Notes under the pieces: model-generated | Database searches by the model: none | Seen by the model: only the letters and a program-made list of their open reading frames with translations | Told to the model about the DNA's origin: nothing | Program-made: the position numbers and the translations under genes | Shown: positions 45,209 through 50,306 of the stretch, piece after piece | How positions within the stretch are numbered: the first letter of the stretch is position 1 | Layout of the letters: every line of letters begins with the position of its first letter | Source of the DNA: a virus | Length of the DNA: 64,000 bases | Direction: 5' to 3' (one strand) | Virus record (IMG/VR): IMGVR_UViG_3300032053_000002 | Coordinates: 172,752-236,751 of that record

Positions 45209-46260
45209 TATTTTTCTCCCTGGGTTTGTAATGCAAATATATTTAACTTATTAAAATTAGTCAGCAACCACGAATTCAAATTAGGAATTGCGGAATACAT
45301 CTTGTCCTCTAGAAACAAGCGTTTAAATTGAAACTGATTTATTATACTTATCGGCTTATCAATAAGTTCCCGAATAATTGATTTACTAGTTCCGCTAATA
45401 TTACTGGTACTGAGTTGCATTAATTTATAATTTCTAATCAGTTCATCTTTTTTTTCAGATAAAGTTTTAAGTGTCTTATTATTTTCCGACTCTTTTTGTA
45501 TGTATTCCATGAAAGAATCAAAATCTATTTTTTTATCTTCGCAGATTATTGCGACATTTTTATGCACCGTTTTTTCGCCGATTCCTTTTATACCTGGAAC
45601 ATTATCAGATTTATCCCCGGTAATAATTTTAAATAAAATATGATTGTCAGATATAACTCCGTAGTCTTCTTTCACCGAAGAAGGGGTATAGAGTTTTTTT
45701 CGGGTTGGACTCCAAACCGAAACCTTATCGTTTATTAACTGTATAAAATCCGCGTCGGTCGACATTATAGTTACTTTTTCTTTGAATATATCATTCGCAA
45801 GATACGCCATCACATCGTCGCCTTCTACATTTTCTATCACAATAGTTGTTACCGGCAAAAAATCCAAATACTCCGCTATTCGTATTAATTGTCGCATCGC
45901 ATTTTTATGTTCTTCATCCGCATCTTCAAAATCGTATGCACGATTCAACCTTACTCGTAATCCTTTTCTGTTTTGCTTATATTCGGGGTATATTTTTCGC
46001 CTTCGTTGACTTCCACCTTTACCATCGAAAACAATTACACAACGAGTTGGGCTCAGCAATCGAACGGCATACGCGACAGTATTCAAAAACCCGACAATCC
46101 CTCCAATGTGAGTTCCGTCATCATTCATGGACGGATTGACCGAAAACGCTCTTAAATAAGAGTTGAGCCCATCGATTATTAAAACATTAGAATTTACGGT
46201 TTGCTCAACGGAATGTTCCTTTTGTATCTCTTTTAAGAGATTGTTAAAATTTACGGTCAT
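45208..46260 (-). CDS. rnh: 5'-3' exonuclease / RNase H (T4 Rnh-like)
   Basis: A 350-residue flap-type 5' nuclease. NVLIIDGLNSYLRAF and CVIVFDGKGGSQRRR give the first metal-binding aspartates, YPEYKQNRKG the arch basic patch, VEGDDVMAYLA and MSTDADFIQLI further metal ligands, and TGDKSDNVPGIKGIGEKT the helix-hairpin-helix. It removes RNA primers and flaps during lagging-strand synthesis. It overlaps the S24-like gene by four bases and touches the helicase gene. Confidence 0.9.
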   Translation of the reverse strand: MTVNFNNLLKEIQKEHSVEQTVNSNVLIIDGLNSYLRAFSVNPSMNDDGTHIGGIVGFLNTVAYAVRLLSPTRCVIVFDGKGGSQRRRKIYPEYKQNRKGLRVRLNRAYDFEDADEEHKNAMRQLIRIAEYLDFLPVTTIVIENVEGDDVMAYLANDIFKEKVTIMSTDADFIQLINDKVSVWSPTRKKLYTPSSVKEDYGVISDNHILFKIITGDKSDNVPGIKGIGEKTVHKNVAIICEDKKIDFDSFMEYIQKESENNKTLKTLSEKKDELIRNYKLMQLSTSNISGTSKSIIRELIDKPISIINQFQFKRLFLEDKMYSAIPNLNSWLLTNFNKLNIFALQTQGEK

Positions 46261-46811
46261 GGATTTAACACATCAACCAATTTCTCAGTCGCCTTTCCAT
46301 AAATTTGTTTAGTCCAACCGTTTGTTTTTCCGCGATTGTTTCCTATTAAACAACCTCGCTCTTCATTTTTTGCTTTTACTATATGAAGATAAAATTTCCC
46401 CTTTACTTTGCAATAAACAATGTCGCCTACTTTAACATCTTCCATTTTAATCGGCACCAATCTAACAGGTTGTTTTGATTTAATTAGGGGAGTCATAGAA
46501 TTTCCAGATTCTTTAACTATTATTGATTCTCCTTTTTGGAGCATTTCTACTTTCCAATTATTCAACTCCGTTTCCTCCAATATATTATTTTTTTTATGTA
46601 ATTCAAGTTCTTTTTCAAACTTTTTATCCGCCGCCCTAAAACAATGAAAGTTTTCGCATTGACTTCCAGGATCTCGTTCTTCTTTATGTTTTCTACACCA
46701 ACCTTTTTCTATATAGCCACCAAACTCATTTCCGTTAAAATTATAATAAATACAAAAATCGCAAACGGGCAAGCACTCATCGCAACAAGTTATTGGTAAA
46801 TTACTTTTCAT
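46257..46811 (-). CDS. S24/LexA-like protein with Cys-rich N-terminus
   Basis: A 184-residue protein of two parts. Residues 1-65 hold many cysteines (CCDECLPVCDFCIYYN, GWCRKHKEERDPGSQCENFHC), a zinc or iron-sulfur module. Residues about 90-184 follow the LexA/UmuD/S26 fold: KESGNSMTPLIKSKQPVRLV with a possible nucleophile serine, VGDIVYCKVKGKFYLHIV and IGNNRGKTNGWTKQIYGKA. The catalytic lysine is not obvious. Many phages carry such proteins without a known role. There is no DNA-binding domain like that of LexA. Confidence 0.65.
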   Translation of the reverse strand: MKSNLPITCCDECLPVCDFCIYYNFNGNEFGGYIEKGWCRKHKEERDPGSQCENFHCFRAADKKFEKELELHKKNNILEETELNNWKVEMLQKGESIIVKESGNSMTPLIKSKQPVRLVPIKMEDVKVGDIVYCKVKGKFYLHIVKAKNEERGCLIGNNRGKTNGWTKQIYGKATEKLVDVLNP

Positions 46812-47193
46812 ATTTTTCGACTATCCTCTGAATAAAAAGTTTTTTATTTGAAGTTTTTTTCCATTCACTTTGCCATATAATTTCTATATTAAATCCCATT
46901 TTCTTAGCGAAATCCATCTTTTCTTCGTCTTTTTCCCACTTTTCCCACGCATACTGATTTTTTATCTTATCATAGAAATCTGGCGAATATGTATTTTTAT
47001 TATAATGCCATCTGTCGCCATAATACTCAACGATTAAATTTAAATCTTCAATATACATATCGTATGGAAAAGTGTTTAAATAAAATTCATTTCTGATTTT
47101 AAATCCACAAGATTTAAATTCTTCGGCTACCTGAATATGTCCCTGACTATATCGACGGCGAAGTATTTTTTTCTTCTTATTGTTTTTAGGCAA
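46801..47193 (-). CDS. Vsr-like homing endonuclease, TTG or ATT start
   Basis: A 130-residue protein with a Vsr/PD-(D/E)xK-type core: EFYLNTFPYDMYIEDLNLIV, then EYYGDRWHYN with D-x-W-H and EKMDFAKKMGFNIEIIWQSE. Vsr-like endonucleases are known as the mobile partners of phage genes fractured by split inteins. The start is uncertain: no ATG exists, a TTG stands at 47191-47193 and an ATT precedes it. It lies 18 bases after the C-terminal UvsX gene. It would cut an intact uvsX in a rival phage. Confidence 0.75.
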   Translation of the reverse strand: MPKNNKKKKILRRRYSQGHIQVAEEFKSCGFKIRNEFYLNTFPYDMYIEDLNLIVEYYGDRWHYNKNTYSPDFYDKIKNQYAWEKWEKDEEKMDFAKKMGFNIEIIWQSEWKKTSNKKLFIQRIVEKYEK

Positions 47194-47211
47194 AATAGTT
47201 CTCTATGAGCG

Positions 47212-48102
47212 CTATTCTTCGCCCACAACTTCATCCGTGTGAACTACCGTATCATCTTCGCTCAACCCGATAGTCGATTCAGAACGATATTTGGTGATTA
47301 AAATATCGCAAATCTTATTATAAACGAATTCTTTAAATTCGGGTTTGCTCTCCAATATAGATTTCCAGTTACTTAACTCGAATTTTACTTCTTCTCCATT
47401 TTGGTCATCCATCTTATATCCCGGGCTTGAACGTTTCGCAACGTCATAGTCTTTTAGAATGTTAAGCCAACTTTCGTAGTCGTCTATTCCGCGATCAAAA
47501 TACATATCAAAGTCGGCAGTTCTAAATGGTGGTGCGACACGATTTTTAATAACCTGCGCTCTTGCTTTAACTCCGAGTACCCTATCTTCACTTTTTGTTT
47601 TTTGTTTTATTTGCCCTATACATTTTAAGCGAAGTCGTACAGAAGAATGAAATGCTATTGCTTTTCCGCCAGAAGTTGTATTATGATTTAATCTTCCATT
47701 GGCATAATAATTTTCGCCATCAACTTCAATGTCAACTATATTTAATGGTTCGTCAGTAACCCACTTAAAATCTTCATGGCTTCTTAGCGTAATATCTTTA
47801 TAGATTTTTTTTGTTTTAAATTCTTCTCCACCAAATGAATCCGCGGGTCTCCTCAACTCTATTATTCTATGATTTCCACTTCCTTTCAATTTTCCATCTG
47901 TATAATAATCTTCAACGGATTCTTTAACCAAAAAGGTTTTTACTTTCTTATATTCATCTTTTCCAGTTTCCAGATTCTTTCCCAACACTTGAATATCAAA
48001 ATCAGATAAATCATACTCGCATGGTGTCTTAAAATCATTTATACCGATAAATTTTTCAGCGAATTCTGCTAAAGTCAATTCTTCTTCAATGTATTTTTCC
48101 AT
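47212..48102 (-). CDS. uvsX-C: C-intein fused to C-terminal part of UvsX
   Basis: A 296-residue protein in two parts. Residues 1-141 are a C-terminal intein piece: MEKYIEEELTLAEFAEKFIG at the start, a GSGNHRIIEL block B-like motif at 74-83, and NIVDIEVDGENYYANGRLNH then Asn 141 as the splice end. Residues 142-296 are the rest of a RecA/UvsX: TTSGGKAIAFHSSVRLRLK, then NRVAPPFRTADFDMYFDRGI. The +1 residue is Thr, a valid splice nucleophile. Joined to the N-terminal gene it gives a 383-residue recombinase, close to T4 UvsX in size. Confidence 0.92.
   Translation of the reverse strand: MEKYIEEELTLAEFAEKFIGINDFKTPCEYDLSDFDIQVLGKNLETGKDEYKKVKTFLVKESVEDYYTDGKLKGSGNHRIIELRRPADSFGGEEFKTKKIYKDITLRSHEDFKWVTDEPLNIVDIEVDGENYYANGRLNHNTTSGGKAIAFHSSVRLRLKCIGQIKQKTKSEDRVLGVKARAQVIKNRVAPPFRTADFDMYFDRGIDDYESWLNILKDYDVAKRSSPGYKMDDQNGEEVKFELSNWKSILESKPEFKEFVYNKICDILITKYRSESTIGLSEDDTVVHTDEVVGEE
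47680..48102 (-). mobile_element. C-terminal half of split intein
   Basis: Residues 1-141 of the gene above. It contains block B-like and the terminal F and G blocks ending HN, followed by Thr of the extein. Its opening EKYIEEEL continues naturally from the ...KLNEK end of the N-intein, marking the original break point. Confidence 0.9.
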
Positions 48103-48104
48103 AA

Positions 48105-48536
48105 TTATTCTCCAAAAAATTCAAACGCAACTATTTTTTCGTTTTTTCGGATTCCCCGACCTTCTTGATTAAAATGATCACGTAAATACTCGTGACTTTT
48201 AAAAAATATCATTCTATTCTCTTTAAAAAAATCTTGATTCATAATAATTCTATAACTGTTTTTCGATTGTTCAAAAATATTTTTATCCGTTCTTTTTGAT
48301 CTTAAATATTCCCTACACATTTTATATATTTCTCTATCATTATATTCTTTCGTATATCTCTCTATACTATCGCATAAACCATCCAATTCAAAAATAAAAC
48401 TATGTATTAATATTTTTCTTTTTGATTCTAATAAATCTCTTTCTGATTCTTGATATCCTTTAAATTTCAATATAAAATTAATAACATCCGCAACATCGGT
48501 TTTTCTTTCTTCAATCATTTCTAAAATATAGTTCAT
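48105..48536 (-). CDS. unknown ORF between the two intein halves
   Basis: A 143-residue, mostly helical charged protein (ERKTDVADVINFILKFKGYQ, YNDREIYKMCREYLRSKRTD). No GIY-YIG, HNH, LAGLIDADG or PD-(D/E)xK motif is visible. GAGGAG precedes the ATG and its stop is two bases before the C-intein gene, so it is translated with it. In fractured phage genes this position usually holds a homing endonuclease, so a new endonuclease or splicing-related protein is possible. Function unknown. Confidence 0.6.
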   Translation of the reverse strand: MNYILEMIEERKTDVADVINFILKFKGYQESERDLLESKRKILIHSFIFELDGLCDSIERYTKEYNDREIYKMCREYLRSKRTDKNIFEQSKNSYRIIMNQDFFKENRMIFFKSHEYLRDHFNQEGRGIRKNEKIVAFEFFGE

Positions 48537-48552
48537 AATAAATTCTCCTCAA

Positions 48553-48588
48553 TTATATTTTTCCATCAACTATTTTAATTTTCTTCAT
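48553..48588 (-). CDS. possible 11-codon minigene
   Basis: AAGGAG stands nine bases before an ATG that encodes MKKIKIVDGKI and then stops, 16 bases before the next ATG. Either it is a leader peptide coupling translation or a relic left by the insertion. No function can be claimed. Confidence 0.25.
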   Translation of the reverse strand: MKKIKIVDGKI

Positions 48589-48638
48589 AAAATAAAACTC
48601 CTTTAATTATTTTTAATATTATCTAATATGAAGAATAT

Positions 48639-49379
48639 TTATTTTTCATTCAATTTATATCTAATTTTTATTTTTGTTGTATATGGGTCAACACACCACG
48701 GGTCTCCGAACATTACTCCGAGTTTCTGCCTAAGTTGATTTGTCAGAACAACGCATATCTTTTGTTTTCCGATTAGACGAGTTATTTTGCGAAGTGCTCT
48801 AGAAATGATAATCGCTTTATCGGTATTCCAACCTTCTTTAGAATAGTCGCCTTCGAGTTCTCCAGTAGTCGTCGCTGCGGCGACCGAATCCACAACAATC
48901 GTTACTAATTTATCTTTGTGCGCTTCACGAACTTCATTTATTATTTTATCTATTGCGGAAAAAATTTGTTCGACCGTATCAAGTTGAGTATAGACCATTT
49001 TACTTATATCTATTCCGATTGCTCGTAAGAAATCCATACTCAATGCATTTTCAGTATCAATATAAACCGCAACGCCGTCTCTCTTTTGAGTATTCGCCAA
49101 AATGTGGGCGGCCAATAACGATTTTCCTGATGCTTCCAATCCATTTATTTCTATGATTCGCCCAACCGGAATACCACCGTGCGGACGATTAGAAATCGCC
49201 AAGTCCAGCATCGTACTTCCAGTAGAAATCCAATCGTCAACATCCGTAGGAGTTTCTTCTTCACCTATAAAATATGCCACTTTTCCTATGTCTTTAAATT
49301 CTTTATTTAAGTTCTCCGCCAACGAATGCGCTAAATCATTTTTGTCCGTTTTATTCTTTTCACTTTTATTTGTCGCCAT
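48639..49379 (-). CDS. uvsX-N: N-terminal part of UvsX fused to an 18-residue N-intein
   Basis: A 246-residue protein. Residues 1-228 are a RecA/UvsX recombinase N-terminal part: INGLEASGKSLLAAHIL is Walker A, TIVVDSVAAAT Walker B, and VVLTNQLRQKLGVMFGDPW reaches the end of the conserved core. The remaining 18 residues (CVDPYTTKIKIRYKLNEK) do not belong to RecA and read as the start of an intein, with Cys 1 and a block A pattern. In RecA the next residues would be TTSGGK, which begin the extein part of the other gene. GGAG precedes the ATG. Confidence 0.92.
   Translation of the reverse strand: MATNKSEKNKTDKNDLAHSLAENLNKEFKDIGKVAYFIGEEETPTDVDDWISTGSTMLDLAISNRPHGGIPVGRIIEINGLEASGKSLLAAHILANTQKRDGVAVYIDTENALSMDFLRAIGIDISKMVYTQLDTVEQIFSAIDKIINEVREAHKDKLVTIVVDSVAAATTTGELEGDYSKEGWNTDKAIIISRALRKITRLIGKQKICVVLTNQLRQKLGVMFGDPWCVDPYTTKIKIRYKLNEK
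48642..48695 (-). mobile_element. N-terminal fragment of split intein (18 residues)
   Basis: The last 18 codons of the N-terminal UvsX gene. Cys 1 is the splice nucleophile and the pattern of alternating hydrophobic residues is that of intein block A. At 18 residues it is much shorter than the classical 100-residue N-inteins and resembles atypically split inteins such as those of some TerL genes. Confidence 0.9.
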
Positions 49380-49404
49380 AATTTTTCTCCATCTCCAATC
49401 AATA

Positions 49405-49434
49405 AAAATAAAATGAGCCGGAATCCCGGCTCAT
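49405..49434 (-). terminator. Rho-independent terminator after gp32
   Basis: Minus-strand stem ATGAGCCGG / CCGGCTCAT (9 pairs, loop of 4) followed by TTTATTTTT. It lies 20 bases after the gp32 stop and before uvsX-N, so it separates the SSB transcript from the recombination genes. Confidence 0.85.
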
Positions 49435-49454
49435 TTGTTAGTCGCAATTAAATG

Positions 49455-50306
49455 TTATTTCTCGTTAAAAACCGCATTAAACGCATCTTGTAATTCACCG
49501 GCATCTAGTGGTTTCGTAGATGGTTTCGGTGGTTTAGGCGGAGCGGGTTTTTTTGGAGCTTCTTCTTCTTCGACGACGCTGTCTGGGTCTGGAACTTCTT
49601 CTTCGTCTTCCGAATAACTGACAGCTTCCTTACCTTCTGGCGCATCTTCCGGATTCAGGTGTTTTTTGAGTATACTCGTCAACTCTTCATAGCTTTTTTC
49701 TTCGTACAATTCGGAAATGTCAATCTGAGAATCAACGATGATTTTCATAATTTCCTTATCGTCCGTAATAGGCGTTTGGTTTACCCGAATACGCATATTT
49801 GTTTTCGGATAATCTTGACCTTCGGCTTTTTTGGAGCTGACAATTATATCTCTACCGGATACTACGTCAGTAATATCACCGTATTCAGGATCGGCGATAT
49901 GTGCTAACAGTTCTTCGTATACCGTTTTACCGAATCCCCAGAACTTAACTCCCTCTTGTTCTTTTTTACGAATAATAATCGGAACAAAAGTTCTCAGTTT
50001 AGGTTCTAACTTTTTACCCATCTTCCAGTTTTCCTTGTCGCCAGAAGTTTTCAACTTTTGTGCGAATTCCATTATCGGGTCAGGACGACCAAATGAAACG
50101 GGCGACAAAAGTGTTTTACCGGCGAGTTCATAATGGAAATACAGTTCGATAAAAGGATTTTCGCGATTGAATTTGTACGGCACAATTCGTATAACCTGTT
50201 CTTGTACTGTAGGCTTCCAAATCATATCAGATTTACGATTTGTTTTCTTTAAAGCGTCCAGACGTTGCTTGATTGCATCGATGTTGATGCCTTTTTGAGG
50301 TGACAT
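49455..50306 (-). CDS. 32: single-stranded DNA-binding protein (gp32-like)
   Basis: A 283-residue protein like T4 gp32. INIDAIKQRLDALKKTNRKS is the basic cooperativity region, then KPTVQEQVIRIVPYKFNREN and HYELAGKTLLSPVSFGRPD in the OB-fold core, with the very acidic C-terminus (YSEDEEEVPDPDSVVEEEEA) that contacts replication proteins. The zinc-binding cysteines of T4 gp32 are absent. I start at the ATG at 50304-50306 behind AGGAG. A middle-type promoter motif stands about 90 bases upstream. Confidence 0.85.
   Translation of the reverse strand: MSPQKGINIDAIKQRLDALKKTNRKSDMIWKPTVQEQVIRIVPYKFNRENPFIELYFHYELAGKTLLSPVSFGRPDPIMEFAQKLKTSGDKENWKMGKKLEPKLRTFVPIIIRKKEQEGVKFWGFGKTVYEELLAHIADPEYGDITDVVSGRDIIVSSKKAEGQDYPKTNMRIRVNQTPITDDKEIMKIIVDSQIDISELYEEKSYEELTSILKKHLNPEDAPEGKEAVSYSEDEEEVPDPDSVVEEEEAPKKPAPPKPPKPSTKPLDAGELQDAFNAVFNEK

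What the first reader, a model, noticed from the sequence alone, without database searches (positions are those of the whole stretch)
47212..49379. UvsX encoded by two genes through an atypically split intein
The upstream gene ends RecA/UvsX at FGDPW and adds 18 residues beginning with Cys that fit an intein start. The downstream gene opens with 141 residues ending YYANGRLNHN and continues with TTSGGKAIAF, the RecA stretch that normally follows FGDPW. Splice residues Cys 1, terminal His-Asn and Thr +1 are all present. The rejoined extein is 383 residues, close to T4 UvsX. The N part ends KLNEK and the C part starts EKYIEEEL, so the break point is visible. Split inteins and fractured phage genes are established; an 18-residue N-intein in uvsX would belong to the rare atypical split class.
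Basis: partly seen in the sequence, partly recalled or inferred. Interest (0 to 1): 0.92.

Follow-up and report, generated by a model that had tools for sequence, protein, structure and literature searches.

The report
Phage recombinase gene split by intein
A large phage makes its only DNA recombinase (UvsX) as two separate proteins, whose ends look like two pieces of a self-splicing intein with a very short 18-residue first piece, so the halves are probably stitched together after translation; this is a clear new example of a known kind of arrangement, and related phages carry the same intein unsplit, split with a nuclease gene inside, or split with nothing inside.

Summary
UvsX-N (49379-48639, minus strand) ends FGDPW plus an 18-residue tail starting with Cys. 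UvsX-C (48102-47212) opens with 141 residues ending NHN, followed by TTSGG. RecA profile positions run on with no gap across the break (199 then 198). An intein-free relative (Microcystis phage Mel-JY01) reads FSDPW-ITPGG there, so the tail is not UvsX. A profile made from relatives only, with the window left out, hits the 141 residues at E=1.3e-41. The predicted fold of those 141 residues matches inteins in the top 29 PDB hits. The same intein occurs at the same site in about 12 distinct viral loci: contiguous in two, split after 15-28 residues in the rest. In eight of these a 345-365-aa EDxHD-type endonuclease gene lies between the halves; in one pair of near-identical loci nothing does. The window differs: an orphan 143-aa ORF lies between the halves and a 130-aa endonuclease piece follows UvsX-C. 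No second uvsX exists in the 293-kb record. This is a fractured gene with an atypically split intein: a new member of a known kind. Splicing itself is not shown.

The parts
48696..49379 (-). UvsX N-extein, 228 aa, ending FGDPW
   Evidence: Pfam RecA E=1.4e-44, profile 5-199 of 262; PHROG 97 UvsX-like
48639..48695 (-). N-intein (IntN), 18 aa CVDPYTTKIKIRYKLNEK, plus stop codon
   Evidence: 16 viral contig stretches carry the same 14-residue pattern; aligns with the start of contiguous inteins L002b and L004
48537..48638 (-). Spacer, 16% GC, with a possible partial duplicate of the IntC start (AATAATTATGGAAAAATACATTGAAGAAGAATT)
   Evidence: local alignment score 34; 9 of 2000 dinucleotide shuffles as high; tentative
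48105..48536 (-). Orphan 143-aa ORF between the two halves (24% GC), own ribosome-binding site
   Evidence: no Pfam/NCBIfam hit, no usable PHROG hit; no relatives in viral contigs or phages; not a remnant of the usual endonuclease by profile comparison
47680..48102 (-). C-intein (IntC), 141 aa, ending YYANGRLNHN; block-B-like SGNH; own GGAG ribosome-binding site
   Evidence: leave-one-out HMM E=1.3e-41; AlphaFold pLDDT 88.5 and Foldseek hits to inteins
47212..47679 (-). UvsX C-extein, 155 aa, starting TTSGGKAIAF, plus stop codon
   Evidence: Pfam RecA E=2.2e-14, profile 198-262; 42% identity to Mel-JY01 UvsX
46801..47193 (-). 130-aa Vsr/EDxHD-like nuclease piece (IVEYYGDRWH), TTG start; lacks the N-terminal part of the full-length homologues
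   Evidence: HMM of relatives' endonucleases, window left out: E=1.9e-11 over the C-terminal nuclease domain only; PF18741 E=6.8e-6 below cutoff

Best explanation
The phage's only uvsX gene is fractured inside an intein. The upstream gene makes UvsX(1-228) with an 18-residue N-intein; the downstream gene makes a 141-residue C-intein followed by the remaining 155 residues of UvsX. After translation the 18-residue piece docks into the C-intein and completes the Hint fold. Cys1 then makes the thioester, Thr+1 takes over the N-extein, and Asn159 (helped by His158 and the block-B His96) cyclises, leaving an intact 383-residue UvsX recombinase. The split came from an intein, at a site in the RecA core, that some relatives carry in one piece. 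In most relatives the gap between the halves holds a free-standing EDxHD-type homing endonuclease gene that would spread the whole unit. Here that gap holds an unrelated 143-aa ORF and only the nuclease domain survives, behind UvsX-C, so homing is probably lost or weakened. Shown: anatomy, homology, conservation, predicted fold. Inferred: trans-splicing, homing history.
For: RecA profile is continuous across the break. Intein-free UvsX runs straight through the site. The joined intein is 41% identical over 168 columns to a contiguous intein at the same site in L002 (E 2e-35 at a nominal database size), and 46-56% to the others in the family alignment. Cys1, block-B [ST]xxH, block-F Asp142, His158, Asn159 and Thr+1 are conserved in every complete relative. 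Leave-one-out HMM E=1.3e-41. AlphaFold model of IntC pLDDT 88.5; the first 29 PDB hits are inteins or the closely related BIL domain. The contiguous relative's model matches mini-inteins at E 5e-5, TMq 0.74. GC steps at both splice points: 39.5% N-extein, 19.3% IntN, 30.5% IntC, 38.0% C-extein. Only one uvsX in the record. Each half has its own ribosome-binding site. Eight split relatives carry the endonuclease gene between the halves, with invariant D, E and GDxWH columns.
Against: No splicing was observed. The window intein alone is not called by Pfam, nor by a PDB sequence search; support comes through its relatives. It carries a 17-residue insertion after the block-B His that no relative has and that the model renders with low confidence (pLDDT about 60). 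The nuclease is only a fragment and lies outside the split, so the usual fractured-gene layout is not intact here. The record is a metagenomic assembly.
Confidence: 0.93

Rival explanations
1. The two halves assemble non-covalently or are a dead split gene; the intein pieces are decayed relics and do not splice.
For: No splicing data. The window IntC has a unique insertion, and the endonuclease is reduced to one domain.
Against: All catalytic residues are intact at about 50% divergence from relatives. Both reading frames are open with ribosome-binding sites. The break falls inside the conserved RecA core domain (profile 199 of 262), and no other uvsX is present.
Confidence: 0.05
2. The interruption is removed at RNA level (group I or II intron) or bypassed by the ribosome.
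For: Phage genes of DNA metabolism can carry introns (general knowledge).
Against: No ribozyme in a sensitive Rfam scan of 46700-49500. The flanking coding tails are conserved as protein, with Cys1 and His-Asn at the exact joints. The gap holds a separate ORF and new start codons.
Confidence: 0.01
3. Assembly or sequencing error split a contiguous intein gene.
For: Contiguous versions exist (L002, L004).
Against: 536 bases and a separate 143-aa ORF lie between the pieces. Split forms recur at the same point in many independent contigs, with and without a gene between.
Confidence: 0.01

Closest known systems
Fractured genes with split inteins and free-standing EDxHD-type endonucleases (Dassa et al. 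2009, NAR gkp095; text not held, known here from citations and memory)
   Same: Conserved DNA-metabolism gene of a phage split within an intein; relatives carry a free-standing Vsr-like endonuclease between the halves
   Different: In the window the gene between the halves is an unrelated orphan, and the nuclease is a fragment behind the C half; the N-intein is far shorter than canonical
Atypically split inteins with short IntN: VidaL (16 aa), PolB16 OarG (15 aa), AceL-TerL (25 aa) (PMC13014065, PMC10189870)
   Same: Split close to the N-terminus at the S1-like position of VidaL and PolB16 (AceL-TerL splits at S2), IntN of 15-18 aa, long IntC; cysteine-dependent like VidaL and AceL-TerL
   Different: Different host gene from TerL and PolB; Cys1/Thr+1 pair; no sequence match to any PDB intein except weakly Spl DnaX. 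From memory a Lake Vida UvsX intein (VidaL UvsX-2) was named in Neugebauer 2017; could not be checked here, and it may be the same family
Contiguous UvsX intein at the same site (L002, L004 in IMG/VR)
   Same: Same insertion point FGDP[WY]/TTSGG; clear sequence homology
   Different: One reading frame, cis-splicing expected; L004 keeps a 65-aa nuclease remnant behind uvsX

Membership tests
Intein (class 1 Hint domain) | Nucleophile at position 1, block-B [ST]xxH, terminal HN, C/S/T at +1 | tested here: met
   Cys1, SGNH (H96), H158-N159, T+1; conserved in relatives
Intein (class 1 Hint domain) | Hint fold | tested here: met
   AlphaFold of IntC and of a contiguous relative; Foldseek PDB hits are inteins
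Intein (class 1 Hint domain) | Match to Pfam Intein_splicing PF14890 | tested here: inconclusive
   Window sequence no hit; 4 of 9 family members hit weakly, best E 0.0018, below cutoff
Intein (class 1 Hint domain) | In-frame insertion absent from homologues of the host protein | tested here: met
   Mel-JY01 UvsX lacks it
Intein (class 1 Hint domain) | Catalyses protein splicing | not testable with these tools
   needs expression
Atypically split intein | Two ORFs; IntN of 15-37 aa, long IntC | tested here: met
   IntN 18 aa, IntC 141 aa; split relatives 15-28 and about 120-131 aa
Atypically split intein | Split just after strand 2 (S1) or after helix 1 (S2) | tested here: met
   The contiguous L004 model has strands 6-11 and 16-21 then a helix at 22-30; the split falls at about 14/15, between these strands and before the helix, i.e. 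S1-like; strand numbering against the literature is my inference
Fractured gene (split intein with endonuclease gene between the halves) | Conserved gene broken within an intein into separate ORFs | tested here: met
Fractured gene (split intein with endonuclease gene between the halves) | Free-standing homing endonuclease gene between the halves | tested here: not met
   Window has an orphan 143-aa ORF there; 8 relatives do have the endonuclease there
EDxHD / Vsr-like homing endonuclease (130-aa ORF) | Vsr-like catalytic core with E...GDxWH | tested here: met
   IVEYYGDRWH; HMM E 1.9e-11 over the nuclease domain
EDxHD / Vsr-like homing endonuclease (130-aa ORF) | N-terminal DNA-binding region | tested here: not met
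   more than 200 N-terminal residues present in relatives are missing

The most novel reading that the evidence does not exclude
The uvsX intein family is a trans-splicing system kept after the endonuclease is lost (window; L032/L033), so that phages maintain an essential recombinase as two or even three separately translated pieces for a regulatory reason, not only as a relic of homing. The orphan 143-aa gene may belong to a new mobile or accessory element that has taken over the gap.
Probability: 0.12. Interest if true: 0.75.

Novelty: new member of a known kind. Interest (0 to 1): 0.55.

Why it matters
Natural inteins with an N-piece of 15-18 residues are rare and valued, because such a piece can be chemically synthesised for protein labelling. 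This locus and its relatives give about ten natural sequences, with contiguous and split versions at the same site. That series allows a direct look at how an intein breaks, and gains and loses its endonuclease. A recombinase that must be spliced in trans is also a case where splicing could gate phage recombination.

Tried and rejected
Pfam, NCBIfam and PDB sequence searches of the window intein found nothing useful, so relatives were sought first. A close-relative scan with the UvsX-C ORF found nothing. The annotated phage collection has no member of this intein, and one scan of bacterial/archaeal genomes found none. Intein and extein trees were too poorly resolved to say whether split or contiguous is ancestral. 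The 143-aa ORF: no family, no relatives, no similarity to the endonuclease. Group I/II intron rejected. The identity of VidaL UvsX-2 with this family could not be checked; the papers are not held.

Full report
Where it lies. The window is part of a 292,723-base virus record. The locus is on the minus strand in a T4-like replication block: gp32-like (50333-49455), UvsX-N (49379-48639), a 143-aa ORF (48536-48105), UvsX-C (48102-47212), a nuclease piece (47193-46801), an S24-like ORF (46811-46257), a 5'-3' exonuclease (46260-45208) and a DnaB-type helicase (45208-43808). Microcystis phage Mel-JY01 has RecA/UvsX followed by a gene annotated DNA polymerase I and a helicase, without the extra ORFs.

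The observation. The Pfam RecA profile ends at position 199 in UvsX-N and resumes at 198 in UvsX-C. The spliced extein is 383 aa and aligns along its length with Mel-JY01 UvsX, which reads FSDPW-ITPGGKAIPF across the site. The 18-residue tail is therefore not part of UvsX. No other uvsX is found in the record.

Is it an intein? Direct searches of the joined 159 residues in Pfam and PDB were negative, so the case rests on relatives. L002 (a 184-kb viral contig) carries a one-piece intein at exactly the same site, 41% identical to the joined window sequence. Using the pair as query, and then the 14-residue N-intein as a DNA pattern, gave about 12 distinct viral loci. Cys1, [ST]xxH, Asp142, His158-Asn159 and Thr+1 are conserved in all complete members. 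A profile built without the window hits the window IntC at E=1.3e-41 and nothing else of note. AlphaFold gives IntC a confident model (pLDDT 88.5, pTM 0.78); its PDB neighbours at ranks 1-29 are inteins or BIL domains. A contiguous relative (L004) folds to a mini-intein match with TMq 0.74. Base composition drops at the splice points: 39.5% GC in the N-extein, 19.3% in IntN, 24.1% in the ORF between, 30.5% in IntC, 38.0% in the C-extein.

The split. In the contiguous L004 model, strands 6-11 and 16-21 flank the break and a helix follows at 22-30, so the N piece contributes the first strand or strands only. This corresponds to the S1-type site described for VidaL and PolB16 (PMC13014065). IntN lengths in the split members are 15, 17, 18 and 28 aa.

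Four natural states at one site. (a) No intein: Mel-JY01. (b) Contiguous: L002 and L004; L004 has a 65-aa nuclease remnant behind uvsX. (c) Split with a 345-365-aa endonuclease gene between the halves: L007, L008, L011, L012, L013, L014, L015, L016; their C-terminal domain is DUF559/Vsr-like, with invariant D, E and GDxWH columns. (d) Split with only 65-106 bases between: L032, L033. The window is a fifth state: split, with an unrelated 143-aa orphan between, and a 130-aa piece of the same nuclease domain behind UvsX-C (leave-one-out E=1.9e-11). The spacer ahead of the orphan ORF may hold a partial copy of the IntC start (9 of 2000 shuffles as good), which hints that the orphan came in with a short duplication; this is tentative. 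Trees do not resolve the order of states.

More than one intein per uvsX. L012 and L014 carry a second split intein in the Walker A loop (GLEG/TGKS in L012, GWEA/SGKS in L014; 13-aa IntN), so their UvsX is encoded in three ORFs; L031 shows the second of these ORFs and the endonuclease after it. L013 has the Walker-A intein in one piece. L002 has a second intein 6 residues upstream of this site, with a 16-aa IntN and an endonuclease gene between.

Mechanism. Trans-splicing by the class 1 pathway is the most likely outcome (0.93): the residues, the fold and the lack of another uvsX support it. No splicing was measured. Cys1 with Thr+1 is an established pair (12% of a surveyed set, PMC11766414). 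An RNA intron is disfavoured. An assembly error is disfavoured because the split recurs in independent contigs.

What is known. Fractured genes with split inteins and Vsr-like endonucleases, and atypically split inteins with 15-37-aa N pieces, are published kinds. From memory, a Lake Vida UvsX intein has been named in the literature; this could not be checked. The window case is therefore a new member, with a departure in what sits between the halves.

Noticed in passing
L012:2635-5831, L014:2649-5822, L031: uvsX in three ORFs: a second split intein in the Walker A loop (GLEG/TGKS in L012, GWEA/SGKS in L014; 13-aa IntN CVTEDTIIxVIIE) plus the one at FGD../T[TV]SGG; contiguous Walker-A version in L013; L031 shows the second ORF onward
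   Followed up: partly
L002:3953-7083: Two inteins 6 residues apart in one uvsX: one atypically split (16-aa IntN, with a Vsr-like endonuclease gene between), one contiguous
   Followed up: partly
G000:C1:261672-263318 (outside window; L018): Two contiguous inteins (one LAGLIDADG-like, one HNH-like by eye) in one 1343-aa frame of the same phage, perhaps the portal protein
   Followed up: partly
G000:C1:245244-245450 (L035): Weak second match to the EDxHD endonuclease profile inside a 648-aa frame
   Followed up: no
L004:3775-4554: Helicase frame interrupted at Walker A (GVGK/CVGGDTEIDIEYDE...), probably another intein
   Followed up: no
L015:2936-4120: UvsX-C frame stops soon after TTPGGECYAS and resumes about 150 bases later; frameshift or a further insertion
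   Followed up: no
window 46257-46811: 184-aa ORF with Cys-rich N-terminus and S24 peptidase-like C-terminus between the nuclease piece and the exonuclease gene
   Followed up: no
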